From IMG/VR virus record IMGVR_UViG_3300049215_000781, positions 1 through 42,964 of that record: a stretch of DNA of 42,964 nt. One strand, written 5' to 3'. The notes under the pieces are model-generated. The model saw nothing but the letters and a program-made list of their open reading frames with translations, was not told the origin of the DNA and made no database searches. Below, in pieces: positions 2,892-40,999 of this stretch; positions within the stretch are counted from its first letter, which is position 1; each line of letters begins with the position of its first letter. Source of the stretch: a virus. The position numbers were made by a program, and so were the translations under genes.

Positions 2892-2900
2892 TTATCCACA
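2892..2900 (+). promoter_or_regulatory. DnaA-box sequence in the phage right end
   Basis: TTATCCACA, a perfect match to the bacterial DnaA-box consensus, 82 bp inside the right terminus and just beyond R2. Together with flanking bases it forms an inverted repeat TATCCACATTTT (2893-2904) with AAAATGTGGATA (3144-3155), which brackets the small right-end gene. Binding by host or phage DnaA-like protein is inference. Confidence 0.5.
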
Positions 2901-2903
2901 TTT

Positions 2904-3107
2904 TCAGTATAAACCAGTCTTCAAAAAGCCCTTGGTTACCACTTGCTTGTACTTCTTGAGGAAGTCGAACTCACGCTTGGTATTGTAGATCATCTCCTCC
3001 TGATCCCATATCTGAAACGTAGTAAAACCGGGATATATTACCTTTTTAAACACCCATCTTTCGTGAGCTATATAAAACCTGTTTTTGCTGATTTGTTGCC
3101 ATTCCAT
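2904..3107 (-). CDS. small hypothetical right-end phage protein
   Basis: I do not recognise this 67-residue protein. It is basic and aromatic-rich (YIAHERWVFKK, KREFDFLKKYKQ) with no membrane segment or signal. It is the last phage gene before the right terminus, the position occupied in Mu by accessory genes such as com/mom. I chose the ATG giving MEWQQISK. The frame stays open upstream to a TTG at 3143 (79 aa) and beyond, so the true start may be earlier. Its stop overlaps the repeat arm at 2893-2904. Confidence 0.55.
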   Translation of the reverse strand: MEWQQISKNRFYIAHERWVFKKVIYPGFTTFQIWDQEEMIYNTKREFDFLKKYKQVVTKGFLKTGLY

Positions 3108-3186
3108 ACCTACTAAATAAGTACCACCATGTGAGATGAACAAAAAATGTGGATATGTTATTGCAAGCCTGTTGAAACGGCATTTT

Positions 3187-3214
3187 TTTGCAGTTTAAAC
3201 AATCATTATCTTCA
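3187..3214 (+). promoter_or_regulatory. possible promoter for the candidate small RNA
   Basis: TTTG at 3187-3190 and TATCTTCA at 3207-3214 resemble the Bacteroidota -33 and -7 boxes, but the 16-bp spacer is short and the -7 box deviates at its end. Initiation would fall about at the first base of the long stem at 3218. Confidence 0.25.
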
Positions 3215-3217
3215 CGC

Positions 3218-3326
3218 CGCGAACCATTCTAATGGCCACTATCCTGGCTTGTTTTCCCCATAATAAAGGAAACCACCCGGACAGAGGCTTCGGCCTCAAG
3301 CTGTTAGAATGGTTCGCGCCTTTTTG
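3218..3326 (+). ncRNA. candidate structured small RNA downstream of dam
   Basis: Bases 3218-3232 pair perfectly with 3304-3318, and with two G-U pairs the helix extends to 3236/3300 (19 bp). The helix is followed by CC and TTTTT, as in an intrinsic terminator. Inside are a hairpin GAGGC-TTCG-GCCTC (3284-3297) with a very stable UUCG loop and a second stem TTTCC/GGAAA (3253-3257/3268-3272). A further 10-nt pairing, CACCCGGACA (3274-3283) with TGTCCGGGTG (3330-3339), interleaves with the long helix, so the two are mutually exclusive or form a pseudoknot. No ORF is credible here. It could instead be a DNA-level element, for example a MITE-like inverted repeat. Confidence 0.45.
3247..3272 (+). 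repeat. imperfect direct repeat flanking dam, copy 1
   Basis: This stretch (GCTTGTTTTCCCCAT then AATAAAGGAAA) matches 4162-4187 (GCTTGTTTCCCCAT then CAAATAAAGAAA) apart from small indels. The two lie in the same orientation on either side of the methylase gene. Copy 1 is inside the candidate small RNA; copy 2 is the dam leader. Confidence 0.6.
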
Positions 3327-3345
3327 CAGTGTCCGGGTGACATTA

Positions 3346-4131
3346 CTAAATCTCATAATTGGCCGTCATCACCTCAGTCTTAATCTTTCCACGACCCGAG
3401 CCTTTATTTACTGATACCTTTTGCTGAATAGTCTTGGTATTCCAGCCATTCTTTTTGGTATAACCGGCCAATAGATCGGATGGGTATGATGATAATAGGA
3501 ACTTGCCTTTTATTGAACTGAGCGCCTCTAATAGCGCCTTAAATGCAAGTTCATTATACCCCGCATAATGACCGCAATCGCTGTTAAAGTATGGTGGATC
3601 GCAATAATGGAAAGTGTCTTTAGTATCCCGGCTCTTTATGATATACAGCGCATCGGCACATTCAAGTTGAACATTCTGCAGCCTGATCGCGTATTCCTCA
3701 GTAAAAAGCTTCCCCTTGTTAATTATCTTTTTCGTGGTAGTATTCCTGGTCTTGTCATACCCCCATGATCCGTCAAGCATAGAGCTGAAGCTTTGGCTGG
3801 CCAGCACCCATACTGCCCATGCCCGGTCGAGGTCATTAAATAGGTCGGGATTATCATAGATCACACCGGCATTATGGTGTTGTTTCCTGGAATGTAATGT
3901 AATCCTGATTCGCTTCTCGAGACTAATAAAATCCTGCTGTACAACCTTATAGAAATTGATCAGTTCCTTATTGGTATCATTCAATACCTCAATTTCGCTT
4001 GGCTCTTTGGCGAATAGCACTGCCGCTCCACCGGCAAATGGCTCATTGTAAAGCACATGATCCGGGATCAGCGGCAAAATGATGGGAAGTAGCTTCTGCT
4101 TCCCTCCGTAATACGTCAGTGGTGTTTTCAT
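3346..4131 (-). CDS. D12-class DNA N6-adenine methyltransferase (orphan, Dam-like)
   Basis: Transfers methyl groups from S-adenosylmethionine to adenine in DNA. The N-terminal TYYGGKQKL and NEPFAGGAAVLF form the SAM-binding region, and the catalytic motif is DPPYF (about residue 179). The 261-residue length fits the MethyltransfD12 family. No restriction endonuclease is adjacent, so it is probably a stand-alone protective or regulatory enzyme, placed where Mu carries its DNA-modification gene mom. It follows the last fibre gene and is flanked by 26-bp imperfect direct repeats, which suggests a cassette acquired separately. Target sequence cannot be read from the protein. Confidence 0.9.
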   Translation of the reverse strand: MKTPLTYYGGKQKLLPIILPLIPDHVLYNEPFAGGAAVLFAKEPSEIEVLNDTNKELINFYKVVQQDFISLEKRIRITLHSRKQHHNAGVIYDNPDLFNDLDRAWAVWVLASQSFSSMLDGSWGYDKTRNTTTKKIINKGKLFTEEYAIRLQNVQLECADALYIIKSRDTKDTFHYCDPPYFNSDCGHYAGYNELAFKALLEALSSIKGKFLLSSYPSDLLAGYTKKNGWNTKTIQQKVSVNKGSGRGKIKTEVMTANYEI

Positions 4132-4161
4132 TTATTCTTCTATCTAATGGTTACTTTTCTT

Positions 4162-4187
4162 GCTTGTTTCCCCATCAAATAAAGAAA
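4162..4187 (+). repeat. imperfect direct repeat flanking dam, copy 2 (dam leader)
   Basis: Second copy of the repeat at 3247-3272, lying between the fibre stop codon and the dam start codon. Read on the minus strand it is part of the dam mRNA leader. A plus-strand RNA from copy 1 could therefore pair with it over about 21 bp with small bulges. Confidence 0.6.
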
Positions 4188-4190
4188 TCG

Positions 4191-4964
4191 TTAATCAAGT
4201 GGAATTATTGCATTAATTGAAATGAAATAATTGGTGCCCGTCTTTAAAACACTTGCCTGTAAATTTCCAGCTGCATCCACATAAAATGGGACAGTTGCCA
4301 CGTAATCTTTACCCGAGCTATCAATTGTAAAAATGCCGTTATCTACCACTCCAATAAATGGCGCATTTGAGGGAGGGGTAACACCAGTGTTCAATATATT
4401 ATACACTCCGGATGAAGCAATTCCAGCATGTATTTCTAATTCTCCCCTGAATCGCACAGTCTTATTAAGGAAGTCATTCCTTTGGTAGATATCTCCCGTA
4501 ATTGTAGCCCCTGCTGCACTTATTGCATGATGCACTTCCGCATCTTTTATCATTGTTGCAAAACTGCTTGGGAAGGTTAAAAGAGATGTAAGAGGGAAAT
4601 GTGTCGCATCGGTTACTGTAGCACCAACGGTAAGCGCGGCTCTTGGGCTGATTTTCACAACTGGATTAGTTCCATCATCAAAGGCTAAAGTACCTGTGTC
4701 GTTTGTGATCTGAACTAACACTACAGAACCCCCTCCGGGCACTGGAATTACCCCACCGGTGAACGAGACAAGATCGCCATTGTAAAAGAACCAACCATCG
4801 CTGATATTTCCACCTGCTTGAACCATACCGCTGATAATATAAGGCCCTGCACCAAAGTTGGCGCACAGCTTTTGCATCATGGTTAGGTATTGCTCCTGCA
4901 TGTCCTTCAAAATATTCTGGTCAAAAGGGAACCCACCAGGTTGGGTAAAGTCGTAACGTTCCAT
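4191..4964 (-). CDS. tail fibre-like protein, distal
   Basis: 257-residue protein with an N-terminal segment (GGFPFDQNILKDMQEQY) that I recall from fibre and baseplate-attached proteins of Bacteroidota phages. Gly/Thr/Val-rich beta-structured sequence follows. It is probably a receptor-binding or fibre-tip component. Its ATG overlaps the stop of the upstream gene (TAATG), indicating translational coupling. No catalytic motif or signal peptide is visible. Confidence 0.6.
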   Translation of the reverse strand: MERYDFTQPGGFPFDQNILKDMQEQYLTMMQKLCANFGAGPYIISGMVQAGGNISDGWFFYNGDLVSFTGGVIPVPGGGSVVLVQITNDTGTLAFDDGTNPVVKISPRAALTVGATVTDATHFPLTSLLTFPSSFATMIKDAEVHHAISAAGATITGDIYQRNDFLNKTVRFRGELEIHAGIASSGVYNILNTGVTPPSNAPFIGVVDNGIFTIDSSGKDYVATVPFYVDAAGNLQASVLKTGTNYFISINAIIPLD

Positions 4965-5470
4965 TATACTATTAGAATTGAGTAAGTTTTGCTTGTTAAT
5001 TTATATTTCTGAATAAGGCCATCCAGGTACTGCGCATTAAAGCTAACCGCGGCTGGTATTTCCACAATAAAGTCTGGCCCGAGAGCTGCTATTTCCGCAT
5101 CTGTGTATAGATAAACTGGCTTTGCTTCAGCAGTTGTGTATAATGGCACTGGCTTCAGCTCTGCAGGTAAATAAATATATACAGGCTCTTCATCAGGGCC
5201 ATCAACTATCACTATTCTTCGCAACGTGTCATCGAATGCATCGTTAAGCACCGCCTCGAGGTGAACAACTTGACCGTTGTGGTTTAGATCATAAGTTGTT
5301 GCATTTACGAAAGCGATGAAAATGTTGTATAGATACTTTACCGGTATCATTGTAGCATTCAGCCTCGCCATTCGTTTTAGGCAGGGCAATTCTGTCCGGC
5401 TGTTTACCTGCCACTCCTGGGGAGTATTCTGTTTTACCAGGTCATCCCAGTTTATATCAAATTGGCCCAT
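4964..5470 (-). CDS. baseplate/tail protein, Mu gp48-position
   Basis: 168-residue protein directly after the baseplate J-like gene and overlapping it by 14 bp, the position held by gpI/gp48-type tail proteins in contractile-tailed phages. Sequence alone gives only a weak match. It has a repeated PVYIYL/PVPLYT/PVYLYT pattern at about residues 115-142 that may be a small beta repeat. The role is inferred mainly from gene order. Confidence 0.5.
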   Translation of the reverse strand: MGQFDINWDDLVKQNTPQEWQVNSRTELPCLKRMARLNATMIPVKYLYNIFIAFVNATTYDLNHNGQVVHLEAVLNDAFDDTLRRIVIVDGPDEEPVYIYLPAELKPVPLYTTAEAKPVYLYTDAEIAALGPDFIVEIPAAVSFNAQYLDGLIQKYKLTSKTYSILIV

Positions 5471-6278
5471 GCGCTTGGAAGGTTAAGATTAAATCAGTTA
5501 CTGGGTTATCAATTCTTAAATATCCCGCATCGGGCAAATATTCCGGATCAATATCGGTGTAAGGAAGAGCGCCGTGTGTGGCTCGTGCATATACTAAGTC
5601 AGGCATTACCACACCTTCAACCTTTGATATTGCATTGAGCAATGCAAAATTCGTATAAAGGCCATTGAACGGCAGGTTCTTTAGAAATTCATCAATTGCA
5701 TCCTGAACTGGTGTATCATCTGTCCCATCCAATCTTTTGCCAGCACTATCAAGTATAAGTGGATCATAATAGATTGTCAGGCTCAGCTGCAAACTGTCGG
5801 GATCATTGCTGTCAATCTGTAACCTTACCCCGGCATCTTTTATTAGGCCCATGTAAGCTGTAAATGCGGCCAGTTCTGTCGTGATCTTGGCCAAGTCGCC
5901 ACCGCTTAACTTTGCCACTTTGATCCTGATTCCTTTAGTTATCTCAACTGCAGCGGCATAAGCAACAACTTGTTTAGTTGCATCGATCACGGCGTAAACA
6001 TCGCTGTCTACAGGTAATGCATCCCCATATTGAAATGCCTTTGCTTTAGTTACATACCATTGTAAAGTATGCGCTTTCATGGTCGCAATCGCATTGTTCA
6101 CGAGAGCCGTAAGGTCATCATACAGATTCTCCTCTGTATTATTAGCTTCTGAAATAAGCCAAAGCCATTGCCTGTAAGATGCAACCTTGCTTGTGCTGGT
6201 ATATAGTGGCCCAAGTATTGGATCGGCCAGCACTTGGGCTAAAAGATCGTCGAATATATCTTGTGTGTCTCTTGCCAT
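5457..6278 (-). CDS. baseplate J-like protein
   Basis: 273-residue protein with the baseplate J/gp47 pattern: an N-terminal helical part (MARDTQDIFDDLL, then YRQWLWLISEANN), a central repeat-like alpha/beta section, and a C-terminal part with VQDAIDEFLKNLPFNG and VEGVVMPDLV. These proteins form the baseplate wedge joining the hub to the fibres. It lies between the accessory secreted genes and the gp48-like gene in the expected order. Confidence 0.75.
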   Translation of the reverse strand: MARDTQDIFDDLLAQVLADPILGPLYTSTSKVASYRQWLWLISEANNTEENLYDDLTALVNNAIATMKAHTLQWYVTKAKAFQYGDALPVDSDVYAVIDATKQVVAYAAAVEITKGIRIKVAKLSGGDLAKITTELAAFTAYMGLIKDAGVRLQIDSNDPDSLQLSLTIYYDPLILDSAGKRLDGTDDTPVQDAIDEFLKNLPFNGLYTNFALLNAISKVEGVVMPDLVYARATHGALPYTDIDPEYLPDAGYLRIDNPVTDLILTFQAHGPI

Positions 6279-6284
6279 TTACTT

Positions 6285-6632
6285 TTATTGAACTGTAAAC
6301 CCTAAATAATATCCCACGAATTGTGCGGGTGTTGTTACCGTATTGTCATATTCCATCCACCGGTTATAAAGGTTCAGTGGGTATGCCGGTATGTTTCCGT
6401 ACGGTGTATGGGCCGGTATGTTCCCCTGAGTTATCAAATGATTTGCGCGGCCAAATACTCCATAATTTACCACGAACGAAGTATCGTCATATAAGCAAGC
6501 TACATTAGCTGTAATGTAGATCAGGCTGTCATTGCCAATTTTTATAGGCGGATTGAATTTTACAGTGTCAATACTCTGCGCCAGTCCATCTATTGAAAAA
6601 CACAGTGCTGCCGCCAATAATATCTTTCTCAT
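6285..6632 (-). CDS. small exported protein in the tail region
   Basis: 115 residues beginning with a clear Sec signal peptide (MRKILLAAALCFSIDGLAQ, predicted cut at about residue 19-20), then a short beta-rich domain. I recognise no family. Its start overlaps the stop of the preceding gene (ATGA), so it belongs to the late operon. An exported protein encoded between a fibre-like gene and the baseplate J gene is unexpected. Confidence 0.65.
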   Translation of the reverse strand: MRKILLAAALCFSIDGLAQSIDTVKFNPPIKIGNDSLIYITANVACLYDDTSFVVNYGVFGRANHLITQGNIPAHTPYGNIPAYPLNLYNRWMEYDNTVTTPAQFVGYYLGFTVQ

Positions 6633-6868
6633 TTCGTTTTGTTTTTGGGTGATTGAATGCTTTTTGATGTATCCGCTTCTTGCTTTTCTACTTGCGATAT
6701 GATCTTTCGCTGCAACTCCACAACTGTGCTATGCGGAGCGTTGCTTTGATCAAGACATTGATATAGAACGACCATTTCATTATCACTTAGAGTAAGCGTG
6801 TAATTTCGTGGAGTGTTTGCAGCCATCAGGGCGGCATAGATCATGATTGCTAATATTGCTTTCTTCAT
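6629..6868 (-). CDS. small protein with N-terminal membrane or signal segment
   Basis: 79 residues: a hydrophobic start (MKKAILAIMIYAALMAA) that is a signal peptide or anchor, then a helical region with LQRKIISQVEKQEADTSKS and a polar C-terminus. No family recognised. It sits between two genes whose products also carry Sec signals and overlaps the next start by 4 bp. Confidence 0.55.
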   Translation of the reverse strand: MKKAILAIMIYAALMAANTPRNYTLTLSDNEMVVLYQCLDQSNAPHSTVVELQRKIISQVEKQEADTSKSIQSPKNKTK

Positions 6869-6876
6869 ATTGTTGG

Positions 6877-8526
6877 TTATTGAATTACGTGATAATACCA
6901 GATGTAGGTGGTTGCAGCCGTTAAATTGGTTGAGCCCACTTTAGCTATAAATTGGGTAGTTGAGGTGCTCGCTTCATCGGCATACACTGCAGCATTCCCT
7001 GATAAGGTGGCGGTGTTTGGCCCTCCGGGAGTTAATACTACGCTTTTAGGAGCGGCACCATAAGCCACATTAAATGTTACTGTAAAAACTGTCGCAGAAG
7101 CTGATGGGCTTGTCCCGGTAGTAAGGCTTATAAAGCCACCGGCATCAGTTCCTGATATGCTGATGGTTGGGCTCGTACCCGCTCCAGTTCCAGCTGCAAT
7201 TGTAGGCGCGGAACTATTGCCAATAATGTGCGTGACTTTCAATGGTTGCTTACATTGAACGAATGCATCATCGGTAATCAAAACTTCATCTGTGGCACCC
7301 GTGTTCAATATACCTACTTCACCACCACTTACATTGCGCGGTTGAATAGCAAGGTCTTTAGATGATCCTCCGGTAATTCCATTTGTGAAGTATATGGACG
7401 CAGTCGTAGTAGTGTGAAAGGCTTGCGATACACCAAAGTTTATGCCATCATTAATAGTGACACCAGTATTAAGAGTATTAGTGTAATCTAACGATGGCCC
7501 CATTTGAATATTTCCAAAATTGTCAATAATCATTGCCCCTGTCGCATTAGTGCCAATAATAGTCCTATCTGCTCCAATACCAAAAACTGTATTGTATGCC
7601 GGAGTTCCTGTTGCCCTTGTTCCATATCCCAGCTTAATTCCATATCCACCTGACGTTTCCCCTGTCCTGAATGTTTCATAAAAAACCGGATTGCCAGATG
7701 TAGCTGTTCCTCTATCCGCATAAAACTCACCAGCATCATTTGCTGCAGTAGCTGCTATTGTAACAGTTTGCCTGGCTGTAAAAGCATTTGAATGCCCCAA
7801 AGCGATGGATGCTATAACCGATCCGGTGGTTGGGCTTATAGTTAATGAGCCGTCACTATTGCTTACTGAATTTGCATAGGTTCCGGATAACGTAAATCCT
7901 CCCTTCCCATCATATACAATTGGGGATGTTGCAGAGAAAAGACTATGCACTGAAGCGTAAAAGGTAGATATATAAGAAGAGTCAAGAGATGTCCATTGAA
8001 CGCCTCCTCCAGCTCCGTTTACATTTGCAAGAACTTTTCCAAGAGCTGGAGTTCCGTATCCTCGAGAATAACTTAACCCTCCCTGAATTGTCACATCATA
8101 AGGGCCGCCAGTTGGGGTATTACCAAGACTTACTGTTTGGCCTAAAAAAAGTTCACCATCTGGCTTAATCATAATATGCCAGTTTCTTAAACCATTTGCA
8201 CCCAAGTATAACGGGAAATTATCTCTCGTTTGAACCACCCCCGTATCATTAAAGAAATTGCCCCTATTCCTGAAATATGTGCCAGTATCTCCTTTCTCCA
8301 GACTTCTTGCCACTACCATACTATCAGCAAGTGCTGTACTGTCTGCCAGCAACCCATAAATTATAGTATTGCCCAAAGTAATTTGCTTCAGCAGCGCATG
8401 CATGTTAACAGTATAATAAGTCACACTGTCATTTGTGCGACTAATGGCTTGCCTAAAACTTTGCGCTTTACCACCCATGGCCATGCAAGCGAATGCAATC
8501 AATACAATTAGTTTCTTCAGTCTCAT
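6877..8526 (-). CDS. tail fibre-like protein with a Sec signal peptide
   Basis: 549 residues. The start MRLKKLIVLIAFACMAMG followed by GKAQ is a textbook signal peptide, predicted to be cut after residue 22. The mature part is Gly/Ser/Thr/Asn-rich and repetitive, with segments like LYLGANGLRNWHIMIKPDG and FGNIQMGPSLDYT that resemble trimeric fibre shafts. The C-terminal approx 60 residues form a compact beta domain ending in TYIWYYHVIQ. It follows the LysM-like tail gene. Phage fibres normally assemble in the cytoplasm, so export is surprising. It may instead be a surface or adhesion protein carried by the prophage. Confidence 0.6.
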   Translation of the reverse strand: MRLKKLIVLIAFACMAMGGKAQSFRQAISRTNDSVTYYTVNMHALLKQITLGNTIIYGLLADSTALADSMVVARSLEKGDTGTYFRNRGNFFNDTGVVQTRDNFPLYLGANGLRNWHIMIKPDGELFLGQTVSLGNTPTGGPYDVTIQGGLSYSRGYGTPALGKVLANVNGAGGGVQWTSLDSSYISTFYASVHSLFSATSPIVYDGKGGFTLSGTYANSVSNSDGSLTISPTTGSVIASIALGHSNAFTARQTVTIAATAANDAGEFYADRGTATSGNPVFYETFRTGETSGGYGIKLGYGTRATGTPAYNTVFGIGADRTIIGTNATGAMIIDNFGNIQMGPSLDYTNTLNTGVTINDGINFGVSQAFHTTTTASIYFTNGITGGSSKDLAIQPRNVSGGEVGILNTGATDEVLITDDAFVQCKQPLKVTHIIGNSSAPTIAAGTGAGTSPTISISGTDAGGFISLTTGTSPSASATVFTVTFNVAYGAAPKSVVLTPGGPNTATLSGNAAVYADEASTSTTQFIAKVGSTNLTAATTYIWYYHVIQ

Positions 8527-8829
8527 TTATTCAAATTCTTTATTGTCAAATTCACCAGGATCAAACTCTTCCATCTGCCTTGGCGGCGGCGCAGTAGCTA
8601 TTACATACTGTCCTCTATCCGGGCCGTAGTTTCTCATTTGCAAGGCTACTTGGCTTACTTTATCGATCTTCACACCATCCGGTATAATAAAGGTTGCTCC
8701 CGGTGTTGGTATATCAGTAACACTTAGTCCATTCGCTTTTGCAATTGCATAAGCATTCTTACTCGTCCCGGTAGCCATTGACGATACGTCCCACATACTC
8801 TGGTTTTGCATTACTGTTACTGTTCTCAT
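8527..8829 (-). CDS. LysM-like tail protein (gpX-like)
   Basis: 100 residues with a LysM-type fold pattern: QNQSMWDVSSMATGTS, NAYAIAKANGLS, then PGATFIIP. Small LysM proteins (gpX/gp53 type) bind the tail hub or tube in contractile phages. The C-terminus is acidic. Its ATG overlaps the stop of the gp25-like gene by 4 bp, which fits a baseplate operon. Confidence 0.7.
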   Translation of the reverse strand: MRTVTVMQNQSMWDVSSMATGTSKNAYAIAKANGLSVTDIPTPGATFIIPDGVKIDKVSQVALQMRNYGPDRGQYVIATAPPPRQMEEFDPGEFDNKEFE

Positions 8830-9113
8830 AAATAATATGCGACCAGGTTGTTTAAGTTTAAGATTTCTATTTCCATACCGTCCCGGTTAAACTGGCTCTT
8901 TATGTCTTCCAGGATGCTACCTGCGCCCTCATCATCATCAAAATAATTTTCAAGGCCAATCCCCACGCTCGGACTTTGTGTAAATGCGCCGGGTGCATTT
9001 AAAAGTAATTGCCGCTGATGCTCCAATGTGCTCTCTACACTGCTTAAATCACCATTCAGCCACAGATCATCTCCGTTCTCATCAAAACCTATGTCTAACA
9101 TTTCTCTTGCCAT
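8826..9113 (-). CDS. gp25/gpW-like baseplate wedge protein (Mu gp46 type)
   Basis: 95 residues with the gp25-like pattern: an N-terminal DIGFDENGDDLWLNGDL, VESTLEHQRQLLLNAPGAF, then SVGIGLENYF. These proteins trigger sheath contraction in the baseplate wedge. Coupled by ATGA overlap to the LysM-like gene downstream. Confidence 0.75.
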   Translation of the reverse strand: MAREMLDIGFDENGDDLWLNGDLSSVESTLEHQRQLLLNAPGAFTQSPSVGIGLENYFDDDEGAGSILEDIKSQFNRDGMEIEILNLNNLVAYYL

Positions 9114-9117
9114 ATCA

Positions 9118-9351
9118 TCAAATTAAATTGCCTATACTTATTGCTGGCCCTGGCCCTGTTACAGGCCCTCCGGCTGGCGGAGCGATTAAGCCTACGTTAT
9201 ACGCTATTCCTCCGCTTTTCACATATACATCAATGGCGTTTGCCAAAGCATCTGCAAAATCATCCGCAGCCACTACCGGGTCAGCCACATTCGCTCTCGC
9301 AGCGGCAAATGCCGCTATTATACTTGCTTTCAATGTCGCTTTATCTAACAT
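9118..9351 (-). CDS. small hypothetical tail-region protein
   Basis: 77 residues, alanine-rich helical first half (KASIIAAFAAARANVADPV) and a proline/glycine-rich tail (APPAGGPVTGPGPA). No family recognised. It is sandwiched tightly between the baseplate spike and gp25-like genes, so it is probably a minor tail or assembly protein. Confidence 0.55.
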   Translation of the reverse strand: MLDKATLKASIIAAFAAARANVADPVVAADDFADALANAIDVYVKSGGIAYNVGLIAPPAGGPVTGPGPAISIGNLI

Positions 9352-9353
9352 CT

Positions 9354-9866: not shown

Positions 9867-9868
9867 TT

Positions 9869-10921: not shown

Positions 10922-10922
10922 A

Positions 10923-32644: not shown

Positions 32645-33451
<807 letters not shown>

Positions 33452-33471
33452 TTTGTTGCTTTTTTAAATTG

Positions 33472-33732: not shown

Positions 33733-33758
33733 AATTGTAAGTTTTAAATTTGCACCCG

Positions 33759-33777
33759 TCCCGGTCTCGATCCGGGA
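33759..33777 (-). other. GC-rich intergenic hairpin
   Basis: TCCCGG-tctcgat-CCGGGA, a 6-bp stem with a 7-nt loop, in the gap between the small membrane protein gene and the next gene. No T-run follows. Similar in form to hairpins at 15932 and 25390. Confidence 0.4.
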
Positions 33778-33795
33778 TGATTGCCAACCGGGCGG

Positions 33796-34017: not shown

Positions 34018-34078
34018 TTTCTAAGTTGCGTTTAAATATTATGAGTAATTCGTGTTTTTGCTGCCGCCGGTTCATCTG

Positions 34079-34603: not shown

Positions 34604-34631
34604 ATAAAATTTTATTTTTTACTGTGATTGA

Positions 34632-34841
34632 TTACCATTCTATCGTTAATCGGCTTCCTTCAGGTAGCTGCCGGTCGTTAGGCAATACCCTATTCACCTT
34701 TCTTACTAAATCTCGGCGCTGTTTCTTGAGTGCATCTTTTTCACTCTCCACCAGCTCAAGGCCTATTAGGTCGTTCAGTACACTTATCTCGTGCAATAGC
34801 ATATCAAGCGATGCTTCTTTATGCTTTTGTAATTCGCTCAT
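34632..34841 (-). CDS. small hypothetical early protein
   Basis: 69 residues, a helical charged protein (LDMLLHEISVLNDLIGLELV, SEKDALKKQRRDLVRKVNRV). No family recognised. It overlaps the upstream gene by 23 bp and precedes gam, so it is translationally linked. Confidence 0.6.
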   Translation of the reverse strand: MSELQKHKEASLDMLLHEISVLNDLIGLELVESEKDALKKQRRDLVRKVNRVLPNDRQLPEGSRLTIEW

Positions 34842-35181
34842 AGTTCACTCTCTTTTGATCAATGATTGCATACACCTCAGCCAGTACTGCTTTGTCGTAA
34901 GCATCCTGTGCTTTCACTTGCGCCCAATACATCATAAATGCAAGAGCATCGCTGCTGGTAAAGTCTATCGTGTTTTTAGTTTGTCCGCGTTGGTACAGGT
35001 TGTGCAGCATTACGTATTGCTCAAACATGATCTCTTGCAATAGCTGCTCTTCTAATTCATCTGCCACCGGTTCGCTGAGTACATATTTCATGTAAAGCCT
35101 GAGCAGTATCCCGAGCTTCTCCCGGGAGAGCTTGATCTTTACGCCTTTTTCAATTATTTGTGTAATTATTCTTGCATCCAT
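34819..35181 (-). CDS. hypothetical early protein
   Basis: 120 residues, helical throughout (IIEKGVKIKLSREKLGILLR, DELEEQLLQEIMFEQYVMLH). No family recognised. It overlaps the DnaA-like gene by 16 bp and the next gene by 23 bp, so it is part of the compact early operon. Confidence 0.6.
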   Translation of the reverse strand: MDARIITQIIEKGVKIKLSREKLGILLRLYMKYVLSEPVADELEEQLLQEIMFEQYVMLHNLYQRGQTKNTIDFTSSDALAFMMYWAQVKAQDAYDKAVLAEVYAIIDQKRVNYERITKA

Positions 35182-35585
35182 TTTTCTACAGCTTTGGTGG
35201 CCATCTTGTAATTGTTGGTAAATGAGAAGTCCTGTGATTCCAATAGGTCATTGCCTTGTTTCAGGCCGTTCAGTACGGTCGCATGATCATGTAGGTAAAG
35301 CAGCTTTGCAATTTGTTTAAGCTTAAGGCTTGGGAAGTAGTGTATGAAAAGGAGCATGCAGATGTATCGCAGCTCGCACACTTCCCGTTTCTTGCTCTTC
35401 ACTTTATACATGCCGGTTTCATACCCAAGCGCTTTTTCTATAGTCTCTATCATCAAAGCAGGCGTTTTATTGGGCGCCCCGATCGTAATGATCACAGAAG
35501 CATTAATCCCGAAACGCTCAAGCTTTTTCTCGGCCTCATTGGCAACCACGTTCACTATTGATTTCTGTTCCGGTGTCAATTTCAT
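35166..35585 (-). CDS. DnaA domain IV-like DNA-binding protein
   Basis: 139 residues. The C-terminal half matches the origin-binding domain of DnaA: REVCELRYICMLLFIHYFPS, then the helix-turn-helix SLKLKQIAKLLYLHDHATVL with the signature DHATV (100-104) equivalent to DHTTV in host DnaA. It lacks the AAA+ ATPase domain, so it can bind but not drive origin melting. The phage has perfect TTATCCACA boxes at both ends and at the repressor start, which this protein or host DnaA could bind. Its start overlaps the stop of the upstream gene (ATGA). Confidence 0.8.
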   Translation of the reverse strand: MKLTPEQKSIVNVVANEAEKKLERFGINASVIITIGAPNKTPALMIETIEKALGYETGMYKVKSKKREVCELRYICMLLFIHYFPSLKLKQIAKLLYLHDHATVLNGLKQGNDLLESQDFSFTNNYKMATKAVEKWMQE

Positions 35586-35977
35586 AGCGCTGCTGTTTTA
35601 AGTTCTCTGTTAAATTCTCCCACCATCACGCAATAGCTCTCCTCCAGGATCACCCGGTTAGGGCTTGCGCTTTGCATCCTGCAGGCGTGGCTGCTGCGAT
35701 ATGATGCGTCTAATAGGTTTGCAGGTATATTGTTCGCGTAGGGCAGCCAGTTGCATTCATCAAAAAGGTTCCATTGGTTTACCCACCAGGCCCAATACTT
35801 CCGGCTCGTTTCCATTATGGCAATTATCTCCTCGTCCAGCTTCAGCACCTCTCTCATGTAACGAAGGCCCATTTCATATTGATAGTATCCGTATTGCTCT
35901 TCATCCCATCCAAGCTTCTTGCGCACAAGTAGCATGTTCACGCGATACCTTTTCTGCAGTTGCTTTATCCGGTTCAT
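35582..35977 (-). CDS. hypothetical early protein next to MuB
   Basis: 131 residues, aromatic-rich (DEEQYGYYQYEMGLRYMREV, YWAWWVNQWNLFDECNWLPY). No family recognised. Its ATG overlaps the MuB-like stop and its stop overlaps the DnaA-like start, so it is fully embedded in the transposition/replication operon. Confidence 0.65.
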   Translation of the reverse strand: MNRIKQLQKRYRVNMLLVRKKLGWDEEQYGYYQYEMGLRYMREVLKLDEEIIAIMETSRKYWAWWVNQWNLFDECNWLPYANNIPANLLDASYRSSHACRMQSASPNRVILEESYCVMVGEFNRELKTAAL

Positions 35978-36876
35978 GCTGCGTTCCTCCTTTGTAGTTT
36001 ATTGATGTTCTCAATTAGCCTGGTAAGGCTGTATATCGGGTTGCCTTTGCCATCGCGCGGAAGGAAATCTTCAAAATGGTATCCGGGAATCACTTTGTCA
36101 ACTATGCGCTCAGCTTCGCCCATCCAGTATTCAATAAATCCCGCGCGATCTTCCGGAGTGATCCTTTGATATTCGCTGCCAAATCTTCTGAAGAATTCAG
36201 AGTAACCAACAGTCTCCCGGGCCATGCATTTGTCTATCTTCTCTTTAAGGCCGAGGGCGCCGAGCATATACCAGCCGCAGTAGCCTTTGGTGTCGTTCCA
36301 TATGTCTTGTATTTCAACGAATGCACTGTAGCTTAATTTGCCGCCTTCATCCACCAGGAATATGGGACGCTCCAGCGATCGTATGTTATAGCACAGGCTT
36401 TTGCGTATCTGCGCGATCGAACCGGTTGTCTTCATACCGGCAGCTTGTGCCAGGGCGCGTATAAATTGCGAATAGGTTTTGCTTTGTCCGCAGTCAATAT
36501 AAAATGCGTTCACTCTGTTTTGGCTGAACCATCTTGCTGCAACTGTTTTTCCGGCATCGGGTATGTCGCAGAACAATCGCGCTATGCTATTGTCCTTGCA
36601 GTAATCCATTTGCGTGGTCAGGTATTTGAAGGCGTAAGTTTCTACCACTTCTTCTTCTATGGGCTTATTAAATTCTACGCCGAACTTTATCCCGAGTGTG
36701 ATCCACGTATCATCCGCGATCATCTTATCGGTCTTGCCGTGATTCTTAAGCCTGGAGAATGTCGCAGGGCTTATTCCGATACTGGAAGAGAATTTGTTAT
36801 CCGTACCGGTGTAACGTTGACGGGCCCCGAGTATGGCCTGCCTGATTTGTTCCCGTTGATCTGAATTTAAAGTCAT
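35974..36876 (-). CDS. MuB-like target-selection ATPase
   Basis: 300 residues of the MuB/AAA family. An N-terminal HTH (KFSSSIGISPATFSRLKNHG, about 28-47) precedes the ATPase domain. The Walker A reads DIPDAGKT (104-111), with Asp where the first Gly of GxxxxGKT is usual. Walker B is FLVDEG (173-178). The C-terminal region is helical and basic. MuB binds DNA, delivers targets to the transposase and stops insertion near itself. It follows the transposase in the usual order. Confidence 0.9.
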   Translation of the reverse strand: MTLNSDQREQIRQAILGARQRYTGTDNKFSSSIGISPATFSRLKNHGKTDKMIADDTWITLGIKFGVEFNKPIEEEVVETYAFKYLTTQMDYCKDNSIARLFCDIPDAGKTVAARWFSQNRVNAFYIDCGQSKTYSQFIRALAQAAGMKTTGSIAQIRKSLCYNIRSLERPIFLVDEGGKLSYSAFVEIQDIWNDTKGYCGWYMLGALGLKEKIDKCMARETVGYSEFFRRFGSEYQRITPEDRAGFIEYWMGEAERIVDKVIPGYHFEDFLPRDGKGNPIYSLTRLIENINKLQRRNAA

Positions 36877-36906
36877 AAATTTGCTGTTGCTTTATTGTTA
36901 TCAATG

Positions 36907-36931
36907 GCCCCCGTTTCAGCGGGGGCTTTTT
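36907..36931 (+). terminator. plus-strand terminator-like hairpin between the MuB gene and the small basic gene
   Basis: GCCCCCG-tttcag-CGGGGGC, a 7-bp stem followed by TTTTT on the plus strand, opposite to the surrounding genes. On the minus strand it is only a hairpin in the MuB leader. It could end antisense transcription or slow expression of MuB. Confidence 0.5.
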
Positions 36932-36933
36932 CT

Positions 36934-37188
36934 TTACTTGTTTGCGTCAGGCCGGTTGAACAGCCTGTTTTTCTTGGTGATCTTTACTTCCTTTTTTTCT
37001 CTTGCACCGTACACTATCCTTATTCCGTTTTTTTTCGGCTCTGCGGTCACAATAACTTTTTGCCCAAACGATTCAAGAACAGTATTCATCTTGCTCCAGG
37101 TAAATCCCATTGTCCGCATCCGCAATACCATGTCATCGCGCAGTAGTCGGTATAAAATTTTCTTAATACGTAGCTTTATCTTTCTCAT
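36934..37188 (-). CDS. small basic protein between transposase and MuB
   Basis: 84 residues, very basic at both ends (MRKIKLRIKKILYRLLRDD; REKKEVKITKKNRLFNR), with a central FTWSKMNTVLESFGQKVIV. Many Mu-like phages carry a small basic protein here. The role is unknown; DNA binding is likely from charge alone. Confidence 0.6.
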   Translation of the reverse strand: MRKIKLRIKKILYRLLRDDMVLRMRTMGFTWSKMNTVLESFGQKVIVTAEPKKNGIRIVYGAREKKEVKITKKNRLFNRPDANK

Positions 37189-37207
37189 TGTTACAAGTGG
37201 TTTTGTT

Positions 37208-39307
37208 TTAAATATCCTTTAGTGCCCTGGCCATCGCATCCTCAATTCTCGGCGGTATCCATTTTTCTTCGCGTGGTTTTGCCTTTTTGGCGGGTAATTT
37301 GGCTGCTTGTTCTGCCGCGTAATCTTCTTCTAATCCGCTCCTGTGGCCTCTTTCCTCTATTGCTGCCTGCTCTGCAGCGCTCCTTACGGCCTTCGTTAAT
37401 ACCCCCGCTTGCAGCACACTTTGTGCATTTACCCCCCTGTCTTGGAGCACTTTTCTGCGCTCTTTTCCGGCTTCTGCAATGCGCGTCATGTCCCTTTTCT
37501 TGCGCTCCATAAGCTGGTTTAATAGCATTCCCTCCCCGGGTTCAAAGTCTGCTATGGCCATACTTACCCTGTCTGTTTCCCGGGCCACAAAGCGTATTTT
37601 CTCCCCGTCCGTCACCAGCACCCGGCTCATATCCCTTTCGTCGTATAGCACTTGCATGCTCCTTCCCACGTTCGGCAGGTATAGGTTTTCAGGCACCATG
37701 TATTTGTATTTCACGCCGTCAATAGTCACTACCACACCATCATTGGTAATGGTATTGCCTGCATATTGATTACCGGTTTCGTGGGCTATTCCAAATCGCA
37801 TCAGCATCTGTTCGTCGCTTATGGCCTTTTGCTTGCTCTTCTCGCTGGCAATAAATGCTTCCTTCCATTCCTGCTGCCGGTTTTTATTCAGGCGCATCAG
37901 GGTGATGAATTGTCGGATGATCATTGGCGCATCATCAACTGTTGGGTACAATTTTTCATTGGCCTCGCGCATGTCTGTGTTAAGTTTTTCCTTGGCGGTA
38001 ATATTGAACCCGGCATAGTTGCCATACACAAGACTCATTTCTTTTAGCGTCTGATGCCATTCAGTTCCGAAGCTGCGTTCGATCGGTTTGCTCCTGGAAT
38101 TCAGCGCAGCTGCTGGCGTAAACTTTGCCAAACCTTCGTAGAACTCTTGTAGCTTCTCGCTCTTCAAACCAAAGTGATCAGTCTGTATTTGATGTGGCAG
38201 GTACCAGCTGCCGGTAAGTTCTTTTATGTGATACATGGCATCCAGGTAAGCTTCGCGCACCAGGTCTAATGTTTGGCTATTGCCTACCGCATATCCGAGT
38301 ATATAATCATTATAAGTGTCCAGCACTACTACAAGCACAAAACGCTTATAATAGTTTGTGTGGTTCTGATTTCCCTTTCTTACAGTTTCTTTAAAAAAAA
38401 GGTCAAGCCAGTTGTCATCACTATTTACAAGAAGTAATGGAGCGCTGCTGCGTTTCCGATTAATGATAAGCCCGTATTTATTGTAATTTTCGCTGCGGCC
38501 TTTTCTGCCATAAGTAATACTCCAGGCATTTTTGCGGCGGTAATTTCCGATCGTAGTTTTCGATTGTATGATGGGCTTATTGTTTGCTGCTGCCCATTTG
38601 TTATACTTCGCCAGTATCACGGTATCATCCAGTTGGTGGCCATCGCTGATCATTTCAAGCAGTAGCGCCTCGCACACTTCTTCTTTTACCTTGCTTGAGT
38701 TATTGTTGTTAAATCGCCATGCTTCAATTAGCGATGCATATTTTCCTGTACGATACTGTGCTATTTTTTCCTGGAGACGAATTCTGTTTTTAGGTAGATC
38801 AATGTTTTTAGATGCGATAAGTTTTGCGGTGGTCTCCCAAAATTGCGCCATGCTTAGTTTCAGCTCCTTCTTTATCACCTTCGGGTGATCCGTAAGTTGT
38901 ACGAGCATGTTAAGCCAGGATGCAGCAGCTGTGTATTTTTTTATGTAGTCATAATTCGGATCATACACAACCGCTCCGTTTTTGTTGCGCATCCCGTTCG
39001 GCAACTTTCCCCCACCGGCAAGCTCATACTCCGTATAGAATTTCTCCGCTTCAAAATCATGCTGCACTCTTTCAAGAACGGGCTCTCGTGCTATTAGCTC
39101 ATAAATATTACCGTGCTTCTTTTCTATCAGCTGCCGGTAGGGGGATGGGATACTTTCAAAACTGATAAGTATCTTATTGCCGTTACCTCCTCTACCAAAA
39201 ACAATTATTTTATTCCTTTGCTTTAAACTGTCATAGGTGGCCTTCACCATTATATCCGGGACGATCTCATCATATGTCAGGCAAGCAATATTTCCGTAGT
39301 ACTCCAT
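37208..39307 (-). CDS. Mu-like DDE transposase (MuA)
   Basis: 699 residues. An N-terminal DNA-binding region is followed by the rve-type catalytic core: Asp302 in NWLDLFF, Asp377 in IQTDHFG and Glu410 in KPIERSFG, with the usual D-35-E type spacing (33). The beta-strand FVLVVVLDTYNDYILGYA lies between. A C-terminal barrel (NTITNDGVVVTIDGVKYKYM) and a basic tail would contact MuB. It joins phage ends to target DNA, producing 5-bp duplications, as seen at GAATT. It begins 1 bp after the Ner-like gene. Confidence 0.95.
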   Translation of the reverse strand: MEYYGNIACLTYDEIVPDIMVKATYDSLKQRNKIIVFGRGGNGNKILISFESIPSPYRQLIEKKHGNIYELIAREPVLERVQHDFEAEKFYTEYELAGGGKLPNGMRNKNGAVVYDPNYDYIKKYTAAASWLNMLVQLTDHPKVIKKELKLSMAQFWETTAKLIASKNIDLPKNRIRLQEKIAQYRTGKYASLIEAWRFNNNNSSKVKEEVCEALLLEMISDGHQLDDTVILAKYNKWAAANNKPIIQSKTTIGNYRRKNAWSITYGRKGRSENYNKYGLIINRKRSSAPLLLVNSDDNWLDLFFKETVRKGNQNHTNYYKRFVLVVVLDTYNDYILGYAVGNSQTLDLVREAYLDAMYHIKELTGSWYLPHQIQTDHFGLKSEKLQEFYEGLAKFTPAAALNSRSKPIERSFGTEWHQTLKEMSLVYGNYAGFNITAKEKLNTDMREANEKLYPTVDDAPMIIRQFITLMRLNKNRQQEWKEAFIASEKSKQKAISDEQMLMRFGIAHETGNQYAGNTITNDGVVVTIDGVKYKYMVPENLYLPNVGRSMQVLYDERDMSRVLVTDGEKIRFVARETDRVSMAIADFEPGEGMLLNQLMERKKRDMTRIAEAGKERRKVLQDRGVNAQSVLQAGVLTKAVRSAAEQAAIEERGHRSGLEEDYAAEQAAKLPAKKAKPREEKWIPPRIEDAMARALKDI

Positions 39308-39583
39308 TTATATACTGGTTTTGGGGGTCATCAATTCTCTTACTTCTTTCAGCAGCTTATCCATTCCATCTGTCATCAGCTTATCCGTTACCTCTATCTT
39401 TTGGGCCAGCTCACTGTCATTTGGCCTGGCGCCGCGTCTTATTTTTTTTACATACACCACACTGCAATCAACTACGTCTGCTATCACCTTAGCCGGTATC
39501 TGAATCTCTACTGGTTGCGGTGTAATGGTTTCTACAGAATTTTTGTTACAAATGGATTTTTTATTTGCTATCTTCGTCTTCAT
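39308..39583 (-). CDS. Ner/Cro-like small regulator
   Basis: 91 residues from the ATG giving MKTKIANKKSICN. An earlier in-frame ATG (39604) would place part of the operator in the coding region. The middle VIADVVDCSVVYVKKIRRGA is a helix-turn-helix-like segment. Position first in the leftward early operon, opposite the repressor, is that of Mu ner, which limits early and repressor transcription. An inverted repeat TTGTATC/GATACAA starts right at its 5' end. Confidence 0.65.
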   Translation of the reverse strand: MKTKIANKKSICNKNSVETITPQPVEIQIPAKVIADVVDCSVVYVKKIRRGARPNDSELAQKIEVTDKLMTDGMDKLLKEVRELMTPKTSI

Positions 39584-39666
39584 TGTATCTCTTTGCGGAT
39601 ACAAATTTACATAATTTCTGTAAAAACAAAACGATAATACAGAATTTCTGGATTAAGTTATCCACA
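39583..39666. promoter_or_regulatory. repressor/early operator-promoter region
   Basis: This divergent region holds TTGTATC/GATACAA (39583-39589/39598-39604), a perfect palindrome CAGAATTTCTG (39640-39650), a related half-site TTCTGTA (39616-39622), and the DnaA-box sequence 39658-39666 that ends at the repressor ATG. TACAGAA-type half-sites also occur at 39533-39539. Inverted repeats at this place are expected to bind repressor and Ner, but which binds which cannot be read from sequence. Confidence 0.65.
39658..39666 (+). promoter_or_regulatory. DnaA-box sequence at the repressor start
   Basis: TTATCCACA sits immediately before the repressor ATG and 8 bp after the palindrome CAGAATTTCTG. 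A bound protein here would block the repressor's translation start or transcription, possibly linking repression to replication state. Confidence 0.5.
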
Positions 39667-40557
39667 ATGCCTAAAGACAACCCAAAAGAGAGAAGAACTG
39701 CTATAACACAGCGTTTTCAGCATGCAATTGAGGTTATCGAGGAGCAAAATCCACAGCTCCAGAGGGGAGCTATTGCCAATTCACTGGGTATCAGTCAGAA
39801 TACTTTTACAGAAATTATGGGAAACCGGCAGAACGTTTCCCCGGACATTTTACAGAATTTATTTACTGCTTTTAGTGTCAATTACGACTATATATTCCAG
39901 GCAAAGGAGCCTGTAATAGGTAAAAAGATCAATACATCTACCTCTGTCGTTTACGATATAGAACCGCCTGTTTATGCCACAGCACCAGCAGCTACCTCTA
40001 TACAAAAGCGGGGTAAAAAAGACATGGTTTTACCCAAGATCGTAACGGTAGACTCGTCCGGATCAGATAATATTGTCTATGTATCGGTAAAAGCCAGGGC
40101 GGGTTACTTGGTAGGATACGGTGATAAAGAATACATCGAATCGCTTCCGTCTTTTAGATTGCCAGGCCTTACTAATGGTACTTTCCGCGCATTCGAAGTG
40201 GAGGGATCATCAATGCAGCCGCGGCTTAGAAACAGGGACATGGCCATTGGCCGATGGGTTGGATCGTTAGATGAGATAAGAGAAAACCGGGTGCATATTG
40301 TTGTACTGAAGGATGGGGTAGTCATAAAGCGGGTCATCAACAGGATCAAAGAGCGCGGCAAATTATACCTCAAGTCCGATACCCCTACCAACCGGCAGGA
40401 TTATCCGATACTGGAAATTGATCCGGAAGATATTGTTGAAATATGGTACACGGTTGGCTTCTTCTCAACCGATCTCCGCGAGCCGGAGGATATATACTTG
40501 CAGCTGAATGACCTGAAAATTGAGGTTCAGGAGATAAAAAAGGCCCTCAAAAGGTAA
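39667..40557 (+). CDS. S24-family phage repressor (LexA/CI-like)
   Basis: 296 residues. I start it at the ATG giving MPKDNPKERR rather than the upstream ATG at 39565, because the extra residues look non-coding and overlap the operator. The N-terminal helix-turn-helix is GAIANSLGISQNTFTEIMGN (about 34-53). The C-terminal S24 peptidase has a presumed cut at Ala145-Gly146 (KARAGYLVGY), nucleophile Ser182 (GSSM) and Lys221. Self-cleavage on RecA activation would induce the phage. Divergent from the Ner/transposase operon. Confidence 0.9.
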   Translation: MPKDNPKERRTAITQRFQHAIEVIEEQNPQLQRGAIANSLGISQNTFTEIMGNRQNVSPDILQNLFTAFSVNYDYIFQAKEPVIGKKINTSTSVVYDIEPPVYATAPAATSIQKRGKKDMVLPKIVTVDSSGSDNIVYVSVKARAGYLVGYGDKEYIESLPSFRLPGLTNGTFRAFEVEGSSMQPRLRNRDMAIGRWVGSLDEIRENRVHIVVLKDGVVIKRVINRIKERGKLYLKSDTPTNRQDYPILEIDPEDIVEIWYTVGFFSTDLREPEDIYLQLNDLKIEVQEIKKALKR

Positions 40558-40610
40558 TTTACCCCTCTGTCAATTCGGCAATCACATATACAATACTGGC
40601 CTTAATTGCT

Positions 40611-40625
40611 GCATACCTGGTATGC
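40611..40625. repeat. perfect 15-bp palindrome
   Basis: GCATACC-T-GGTATGC: 7-bp arms around one base. An operator-like site 54 bp past the repressor stop codon. Confidence 0.6.
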
Positions 40626-40640
40626 TTCCCGAGGCATTTT

Positions 40641-40676
40641 GCATGCCCAACTGCATGCCCAACTGCATGCCCAAAG
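40641..40676 (+). repeat. three tandem 12-bp repeats
   Basis: GCATGCCCAACT occurs twice (40641-40652, 40653-40664) and once with the last two bases changed (GCATGCCCAAAG, 40665-40676). Each contains GCATGC, itself a palindrome related to the half of the 15-bp palindrome nearby. Confidence 0.9.
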
Positions 40677-40858
40677 GGTTAAAAACAGGTAATATTATCC
40701 CTGTTCCTAATCCATATTTCAACGGCTTAGCAACGTCATTATTACAGTAATTATAGCTTGTTTAATTTGCCCTGAAACGGGCTTTAAATGGCGTTTTTGG
40801 CCGTTTTATAGTATATGATACACCTATCCTGGAGCGGCGCCATTTCCCAATGGAAGTG

Positions 40859-40999
40859 AAATTTACCCAAATGAACCCTATTGTTACAAATCGATTTGCC
40901 CCGTACCGAACCCCCAGTTATCCACAAAAGCCGCGCTGGTGGCGGTTTTTCTGCTCAAAAAATGCGCTTTTTTCTTGTCTCTTAATTGTTACTTATGGT
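40859..40999 (-). other. phage left-end transposase-binding motifs L1, L2 and possible L3
   Basis: Read inward from the left terminus on the minus strand: ACCATAAGTAACAATTA (40983-40999), CGATTTGTAACAATAGG (40877-40893) and TCATTTGGGTAAATTT (40859-40874, weaker). They share ATTTGTAACAA with R1. One outer motif spaced about 100 bp from an inner pair repeats the Mu layout, where HU bends the spacer. Here the spacer holds a perfect DnaA-box sequence. Confidence 0.6.
40918..40926 (+). promoter_or_regulatory. DnaA-box sequence in the phage left end
   Basis: TTATCCACA, 88 bp inside the left terminus and between L1 and L2. It is almost the same distance inside as the right-end copy (82 bp). Confidence 0.5.

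What the first reader, a model, noticed from the sequence alone, without database searches (positions are those of the whole stretch)
2892..40926. Perfect DnaA boxes 82-88 bp inside both phage ends and at the repressor start, with a phage DnaA domain IV-like protein
Seen: TTATCCACA at 2892, 39658 and 40918, plus a near copy at 3148-3155, and a 139-aa protein (35166-35585) with the DnaA HTH and DHATV signature but no ATPase. By chance a given 9-mer on either strand is expected less than once in 43 kb. The end boxes sit nearly symmetrically, the left one between L1 and L2. Inference: the DnaA-like protein or host DnaA may mark the ends for replisome loading after strand transfer, or shape the transpososome, and also control the repressor.
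Basis: partly seen in the sequence, partly recalled or inferred. Interest (0 to 1): 0.82.

Follow-up and report, generated by a model that had tools for sequence, protein, structure and literature searches.

The report
DnaA boxes at transposable phage ends
A Mu-like phage of a Bacteroidota bacterium carries perfect binding sites for the replication starter protein DnaA just inside its two ends; the site at the transposase-side end recurs at nearly the same spot in a few distant relatives far more often than chance, so it is probably a real control site, although most relatives lack it.

Summary
The three perfect DnaA boxes and the 139-aa DnaA domain IV-like protein are real. Comparison with relatives moves the ends to 2816 and 41012 (TA...TA, 4-bp duplication CAGA), so the end boxes lie 76 and 86 bp inside. 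In 41 non-redundant attL-like ends (repressor side) collected without using the box, TTATCCACA lies within 150 bp of the end in 4: here (86 bp), G055 (86), L350 (84, other strand), G050 (109). The same records hold 7 in 715 kb further inside (P 5e-7; 3e-5 without the window), and no other word of the same composition reaches more than 2 ends. A distant relative, L415, noticed through its boxes and so not counted, has a double box at 87 and 75 bp. The box between the two outer transposase-type sites is therefore a genuine but optional feature. The box at the other end (1 of 6) and at the repressor start (2 of 39) has little support. The DnaA-like gene is a usual member of the transposition operon (27 of 41 phages), but 24 of those 27 have no perfect attL box, and L415 has boxes without a detected gene. 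Most likely: an accessory site of the transposition end read by a DnaA-type domain, host or phage. Replisome loading is untested.

The parts
2816..41012 (.). Mu-like prophage, 38197 bp, TA...TA ends
   Evidence: ends by comparison with relatives; phage genes by Pfam and PHROGs
2812..2815 (.). left copy of the 4-bp duplication CAGA (right copy 41013-41016)
2824..2845 (+). outer transposase-type site at the attR-like end
   Evidence: direct repeat; sequence only, binding not shown
2847..2868 (+). second transposase-type site, 23 bp further in
2892..2900 (+). perfect DnaA box, 76 bp inside the attR-like end
   Evidence: not found in 5 other attR-like ends
3148..3156 (-). one-mismatch DnaA box ATATCCACA, inverted partner of the 2892 box
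34079..34603 (-). Gam-like end-protection protein
   Evidence: PF07352 E 4.1e-30
35166..35585 (-). 139-aa DnaA domain IV-like protein with DHATV, no AAA+ found
   Evidence: PF08299 2.9e-7; AlphaFold2 pLDDT 93.6; residues 40-135 on E. coli DnaA domain IV 1j1v, Z 14.1, rmsd 1.8 over 94
35582..35977 (-). o131, small ORF conserved between MuB and the DnaA-like gene
   Evidence: blastp hits in relatives
35974..36876 (-). MuB-like ATPase
   Evidence: phrog_296 4e-26
37208..39307 (-). MuA-like transposase
   Evidence: phrog_310 4.7e-34
39308..39604 (-). o98, small ORF upstream of MuA, divergent from the repressor
   Evidence: blastp hits in relatives
39543..39555 (-). internal exact copy of CCATTTGTAACAA
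39658..39666 (+). perfect DnaA box touching the repressor ATG at 39667
   Evidence: among 39 phages only G416 has another box within 600 bp upstream of MuA
39667..40557 (+). S24-type repressor
   Evidence: PF00717 9.6e-7, phrog_4 5e-13
40880..40902 (-). inner transposase-type site (L2-like)
40918..40926 (+). perfect DnaA box, 86 bp inside the attL-like end, between the L2-like and L1-like sites
40985..41007 (-). outer transposase-type site (L1-like)
   Evidence: end consensus

Best explanation
The DnaA box at 40918 is an accessory site of the transposition end. It lies in the spacer between the two outer transposase-type sites of the attL-like end, where a DnaA-type DNA-binding domain bends or occupies the DNA and so helps, blocks or times assembly of the transposition complex. 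The box at 2892 would let the same protein touch the other end in this phage. The site is optional: some lineages keep a perfect box, most have none. Shown: the box, its position, its recurrence, the protein family and fold, the operon. Inferred: who binds and what binding does.
For: 4 of 41 non-redundant attL-like ends hold TTATCCACA in the last 150 bp, at 86, 86, 84 and 109 bp; the rate further inside the same records predicts 0.06 (Poisson P 5e-7; 3e-5 without the window). Of 1680 words of the same composition it alone reaches 4 ends, five reach 2, and it is not over-represented further inside (7 against a mean of 7.46). Window and G055 share GTTATCCACA at the identical offset, while outside the box and the last 30 bp 32 of 111 positions match. 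L415, a distant relative (MuA-like 21.6%, MuB 9e-22, Gam 2.5e-6, repressor 6e-25), has two sites GTACTTTTGGTT 106 bp apart, as in the window (105), and between them TTATCCACA-TAA-TTATCCACA, 87 and 75 bp from its inferred end; its 3-bp gap is one that E. coli DnaA prefers (PMC11317965, passages). For the phage protein as reader: the three box carriers among the 41 whose operon is held (window, G050, L350) all have the gene and keep DHAT, NHTS and DHTT; the model fits DnaA domain IV solved on its box (1j1v, Z 14.1); none of six boxes tested in window, G055, G050 and L350 has a partner at 2-3 bp better than 5 of 9 letters, whereas E. coli DnaA in vivo mostly needs pairs. For host DnaA: L415's double box without a detected phage gene, and the Tn5 precedent (PMC3347997, passages).
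Against: 37 of 41 ends have no perfect box, among them 24 of 27 gene carriers. Box-less ends do not hold an excess of one-mismatch boxes: at 65-125 bp, 4 ends against 2.8 expected. In 24 further phages whose ends I did not delimit, 43,673 bp upstream of MuA hold no box (about 0.4 expected at the background rate), although not all of those stretches reach the end. Box against intact motif, 3 of 12 and 0 of 12, is not significant (one-sided Fisher 0.11, my arithmetic). In the window protein the third residue of DHxTV is A and K stands where E. coli has R399 (alignment; residue roles recalled). No binding, bending or transposition data exist. L415 was noticed through its boxes, its end is placed by analogy, and no duplication was checked.
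Confidence: 0.5

Rival explanations
1. Only host DnaA reads the end boxes, coupling or restraining transposition with the host replication cycle as reported for Tn5; the phage protein works elsewhere. (A special case of the best explanation; odds overlap.)
For: TTATCCACA is the DnaA consensus. Both Tn5 end types carry one DnaA site, and DnaA is reported to out-compete transposase for the outside end (passages of PMC3347997). L415 has a double box and no detected DnaA-like gene in 9169 bp. Box presence does not follow the phage gene closely.
Against: The boxes in window, G055, G050 and L350 are single, and in E. coli only 13 of 32 single consensus boxes lay in DnaA-bound regions (PMC11317965). 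In Tn5 the box is inside the end that transposase binds (recalled for the exact overlap); here it is in the spacer.
Confidence: 0.3
2. The boxes mark the ends for helicase or replisome loading after strand transfer.
For: The favoured end is the transposase-side end; Mu replication is recalled to start mostly from that end.
Against: No AAA+ domain was found in the phage protein. Mu replication in vitro uses PriA, PriC and DnaT, and the word DnaA does not occur in that paper (passages of PMC3334882). Most relatives lack the box.
Confidence: 0.1
3. The end boxes are chance or hitch-hiking sequence without function.
For: 37 of 41 ends lack them; no excess of one-mismatch boxes; the repressor-start box has weak comparative support.
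Against: P 3e-5 with the window left out; same-composition control; no excess in the next two 44-bp windows at 150-238 bp; L415.
Confidence: 0.13
4. The phage DnaA-like protein acts mainly in trans on host DnaA boxes, for example to block host initiation or steer target choice, and its tie to the end boxes is incidental.
For: G070 (DHTTV) has no TTATCCACA in its 34.5 kb of phage held. Host-derived loci held 30 such boxes in 1.47 Mb, 16 expected.
Against: Does not explain the enrichment at attL ends.
Confidence: 0.27

Closest known systems
Tn5/IS50 ends with a DnaA site (Yin and Reznikoff 1987, seen only as cited in PMC3347997)
   Same: A DnaA site at a transposon end, thought to let DnaA influence the transposition complex
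   Different: Here the box is in the spacer between two transposase-type sites, 75-109 bp inside, and many of these phages encode their own DnaA domain IV-like protein
Phage Mu and other transposable phages
   Same: MuA, MuB, Gam and repressor; tandem sites at one end and widely spaced sites at the other (Mu layout recalled)
   Different: TA...TA ends with a 4-bp duplication; a DnaA-like gene in the transposition operon. The word DnaA does not occur in the two Mu papers looked into
Leptospira transposable prophages with TA-TA ends (PMC8705779, passages)
   Same: TA...TA ends
   Different: 6-bp duplication; the word DnaA does not occur in the paper
Small phage proteins annotated 'Chromosomal replication initiator, DnaA C-terminal'
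   Same: Best BFVD matches (23 at E 0.001 or better), 97-190 aa in the 50 rows shown
   Different: Named rows come from uncultured and other phages such as Flavobacterium and Tenacibaculum phages; their gene neighbourhoods were not looked at. Here the gene sits in a MuA-MuB operon
Flavobacterium columnare prophage fF4 group (PMC7761591, passages)
   Same: Bacteroidetes prophages with a DDE transposase followed by an ATPase
   Different: The words DnaA, duplication and terminal do not occur in that paper

Membership tests
Mu-like transposable phages | MuA-type transposase plus MuB ATPase | tested here: met
   phrog_310 4.7e-34, phrog_296 4e-26
Mu-like transposable phages | Target duplication flanking the integrated phage | tested here: met
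   CAGA in the window; 4-bp duplications at the left ends chosen in five relatives
Classical Mu end type | TG...CA ends and 5-bp duplication | tested here: not met
   TA...TA ends and 4 bp; TA-TA ends are described for other transposable prophages, so this is Mu-like but not of the classical Mu end type
Mu-like transposable phages | Replicative transposition | not testable with these tools
   needs an induced lysogen
DnaA box | Consensus TTATCCACA | tested here: met
   three exact copies
DnaA box | Bound by DnaA or a DnaA domain IV protein | not testable with these tools
   no binding data
DnaA domain IV family (PF08299) | Profile match over the curated cut-off | tested here: inconclusive
   window protein E 2.9e-7 but 0.7 bits under the cut-off; all 10 members of A3 match at E 0.01 or better
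DnaA domain IV family (PF08299) | Domain IV fold | tested here: met
   1j1v Z 14.1, rmsd 1.8 over 94; 3pvp Z 15.1; Foldseek best E only 3.1e-3, probability 1.00
DnaA initiator | AAA+ ATPase domain | tested here: not met
   139 aa, only PF08299 found at E 0.001: it is not a DnaA
Tn5-type DnaA-regulated end | DnaA site within the transposase-bound end sequence | tested here: not met
   box 40918-40926 lies between the inferred sites 40880-40902 and 40985-41007

The most novel reading that the evidence does not exclude
These Bacteroidota transposable phages carry a DnaA domain IV-derived protein as a regular member of the transposition operon, and it acts as a sequence-specific architectural or timing factor of the transpososome by binding DnaA-box-type sites in the spacer between transposase sites, in rivalry with host DnaA: a replication initiator's DNA-binding domain turned into a transposition cofactor. 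Box-less relatives would use a diverged site.
Probability: 0.3. Interest if true: 0.8.

Novelty: new variant of a known kind. Interest (0 to 1): 0.57.

Why it matters
It would link replication-initiator DNA binding to phage transposition beyond the single-element Tn5 case: a recurrent site in a fixed position of the transposition end, and in many of these phages a candidate reader made in the same operon. It gives a direct test of what small 'DnaA C-terminal' phage proteins do, and the TA/4-bp ends point to a distinct transposition geometry.

Tried and rejected
Exact-peptide scans with the window MuA (viral contigs) and MuB (genome contigs) found no relative; TerL, a MuA alignment, a repressor alignment and hairpin patterns did.

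A first reading of the ends (TG at 2810, CA at 41014, duplication GAATT) was given up: with TA ends the ACCAT motif is 13 nt from both ends, and relatives end in (T/A)TA. The search demanded at least 4 matching flank bases. Ranking left ends by similarity alone puts the chosen one first in G451, G187 and G461, second in the window, but only 12th in G380 and 21st in G012, so those two lean on the duplication and on the tandem sites read. G078b, G070 and G017 gave no convincing left end.

Rejected or weak: relaxed-box enrichment in the window; one-mismatch boxes in box-less ends; box at the other end, 1 of 6; box upstream of MuA, 2 of 39 in 23,400 bp with about 0.23 expected (my arithmetic), 1 of 38 without the window; link of box and DHxT motif. 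Pattern TTATCCACA-60..90-GTTTTANCCCCYWTA in viral contigs: 0 hits; none of the four box ends could match there (other L1 letters in window and G050, other strand in L350, G055 is not a viral record). Search for the missing attR-like end of G055 gave only other sequence. Repressor alignment in 396 genomes hit 334, too broad, not used for counts. Double boxes in viral contigs: at least 120 stretches, scan stopped at its limit; among the 80 loci shown none encodes a relative of the window or L415 MuA, MuB or repressor at E 1e-4, so double boxes are common and L415 stays a single case.

What the 41 ends leave out: ends were taken only where I recognised the terminal motif by eye or pattern. Dropped as repeats: L351 (= L356), L364 (= L298), L366 (same end motif and place as L365), L377 (= L293), L387 (= G050), L462 (= G019), L464 (= L372), L465 (same spacer as G416). 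A weak motif in L361 was not used. Of 80 repressor loci most showed no recognisable end, many because the contig stops. 30 further phages were not delimited; 24 had a MuA ORF by the profile and no box up to 2500 bp upstream of it, 6 had none. The background stretch is up to 38 kb inside each end; in the window it starts at 3012, so the 2892 box is not in it. The iterated DnaA_C profile was trained on these same phages, so the count of 27 leans on itself; it includes a weak hit in G078b (E 0.0018). Independent Pfam checks: 10 of 50 TerL-related contigs, some of them fragments, and 10 of 10 in A3. The VIA list excludes no fold that it does not show; the N-terminal 36 residues are barely tested.

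Literature searches: the rows listed showed no paper on DnaA boxes at Mu-like ends or on a DnaA-like protein in a MuA-MuB operon; only listings and the passages named were seen, in a library of openly licensed PMC papers.

Full report
What was checked. The window is itself an IMG/VR virus record. It holds a prophage beside a type II topoisomerase (gyrA-like) gene of the host (1-2574, minus; PHROG match). The top-ranked match of that protein is 82% identical (MAG SZAS-30), others up to 84%, with titles such as Bacteroidetes, Flavipsychrobacter, Taibaiella and Chitinophagaceae. TTATCCACA occurs three times where 0.33 is expected. The 139-aa protein is a DnaA domain IV-like protein without a detected ATPase: residues 40-135 of the model superpose on E. 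coli DnaA domain IV with Z 14.1 and rmsd 1.8, and a 10-sequence profile has only DnaA chains among its PDB matches below E 0.1 (best 8btg, 2.6e-16).

The ends. Relatives share an attL-like terminus of the type GTTTTANCCCC(T/A)TA against other DNA. Demanding at least 4 equal flank bases, left ends starting with TA were found in the window (CAGA), G451 (AATA), G187 (TGAT), G461 (CCAT), G380 (ATTG) and G012 (AGTA). Without that demand the same left end is the most similar place in G451, G187 and G461, the second in the window, the 12th in G380 and the 21st in G012; the last two rest also on their tandem sites. The phage is therefore read as 2816-41012. Transposase-type sites are tandem at the attR-like end and 105 bp apart at the attL-like end; they are inferred from sequence only.

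Is the end box more than chance? I collected 41 non-redundant attL-like ends by routes that did not use the box: TerL, MuA and repressor homology, host genomes, and hairpin patterns (stretches fetched). Four hold a perfect box within 150 bp of the end: window 86 bp, G055 86 bp, G050 109 bp, L350 84 bp on the other strand. Up to 38 kb further inside the same records there are 7 in 715,299 bp, so 0.06 are expected (P 5e-7; leaving the window out, P of at least 3 is 3e-5). Composition shuffles of the first 35 ends (one a repeat) gave a mean of 0.07, and none of 3000 reached 4. Among 1680 words of the same composition TTATCCACA is the only one in 4 ends; five reach 2. Two 44-bp windows at 150-238 bp show no excess. 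Window and G055, whose MuA proteins are 30% identical, share GTTATCCACA at the identical offset against a background of 32 matches in 111.

A further case. On rechecking the boxes I found that L415, a distant Mu-like phage (homologues of MuA, MuB, Gam and repressor), has two copies of GTACTTTTGGTT 106 bp apart at its repressor-side end, and between them a double perfect box, TTATCCACA-TAA-TTATCCACA, 87 and 75 bp from the end inferred by analogy. No DnaA-like gene was found in its 9169 bp. It was noticed through its boxes, so it is not in the statistic; double boxes as such are common in viral contigs (at least 120 stretches).

What is not supported. The other end: of six attR-like ends only the window has a box. 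The repressor start: G416 also has a perfect box upstream of its repressor, but 2 of 39 regions is weak. Conservation with the gene: 27 of 41 phages have the DnaA-like gene by an iterated profile, ten with at least 7.4 kb held do not, and four are too short to tell; attL boxes are in 3 of 27, 0 of 10 and 1 of 4. Carriers with DHTT or DHTS and no box include G060, G070, L349, L356 and G380. Phages close to the window by MuA (G012, G017, G021, G008, G002) have lost the DHxT motif and have no attL box. One-mismatch boxes are not in excess, and 24 undelimited phages have no box in the stretch upstream of MuA.

How it may work. In Mu the spacer between L1 and L2 is bent by HU (recalled; not found in the passages read). 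The box occupies the same place. The gene order MuA-MuB-o131-DnaA-like is repeated in many relatives, so the protein should be made when the transposition complex forms. Four phages have single boxes, which E. coli DnaA binds poorly in vivo, and one has a double box with a spacing that E. coli DnaA prefers. The odds of the rivals overlap, because one protein may do more than one thing.

Comparison with the known. Small DnaA C-terminal proteins are known from many phages, DnaA sites at Tn5 ends are known, and TA-TA ends are known in Leptospira with 6-bp duplications. The combination here, a DnaA-like gene in a MuA-MuB operon and a recurrent box in the L1-L2 spacer, was not in the rows listed by the searches named under Tried and rejected. 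I rate it a new variant of a known kind.

Noticed in passing
2812-2815, 41013-41016; G451, G187, G461, G380, G012: TA...TA ends with 4-bp target duplications in Bacteroidota Mu-like prophages, unlike Mu (5 bp) or Leptospira TA-TA prophages (6 bp); G380 and G012 are the less certain ones.
   Followed up: partly
attL-like ends of relatives, e.g. L270 near 5545-5565: A hairpin plus T-run GTGCATTTTTNGCACNTTTT in the L1-L2 spacer, probably the repressor terminator; found in 8 of 396 genomes, in 7 of them at such an end.
   Followed up: partly
35582-35977: o131, an unnamed small protein conserved between MuB and the DnaA-like gene in distant relatives; no Pfam or PHROG match.
   Followed up: no
39543-39555 and 37188-37200: Internal copies (exact, and one mismatch) of the transposase-type motif CCATTTGTAACAA, in the o98/repressor region and just downstream of the MuA stop: possible enhancer or operator.
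   Followed up: no
2904-3143: A short minus-strand ORF at the attR-like end, flanked by the 2892 box and the inverted near-box at 3148.
   Followed up: no
40640-40675: Three tandem 12-bp repeats TGCATGCCCAAC after the repressor gene.
   Followed up: no
3346-4131: DNA methyltransferase gene at the attR-like end (phrog_56 1.6e-61).
   Followed up: no
G050 (L168) 1003-1821: The DnaA-like ORF of G050 is 273 aa and gives two domain matches to the profile, as if duplicated.
   Followed up: no
L415 8945-8985: Next to the double DnaA box of L415 lies a further imperfect copy, TTGATAACC.
   Followed up: no
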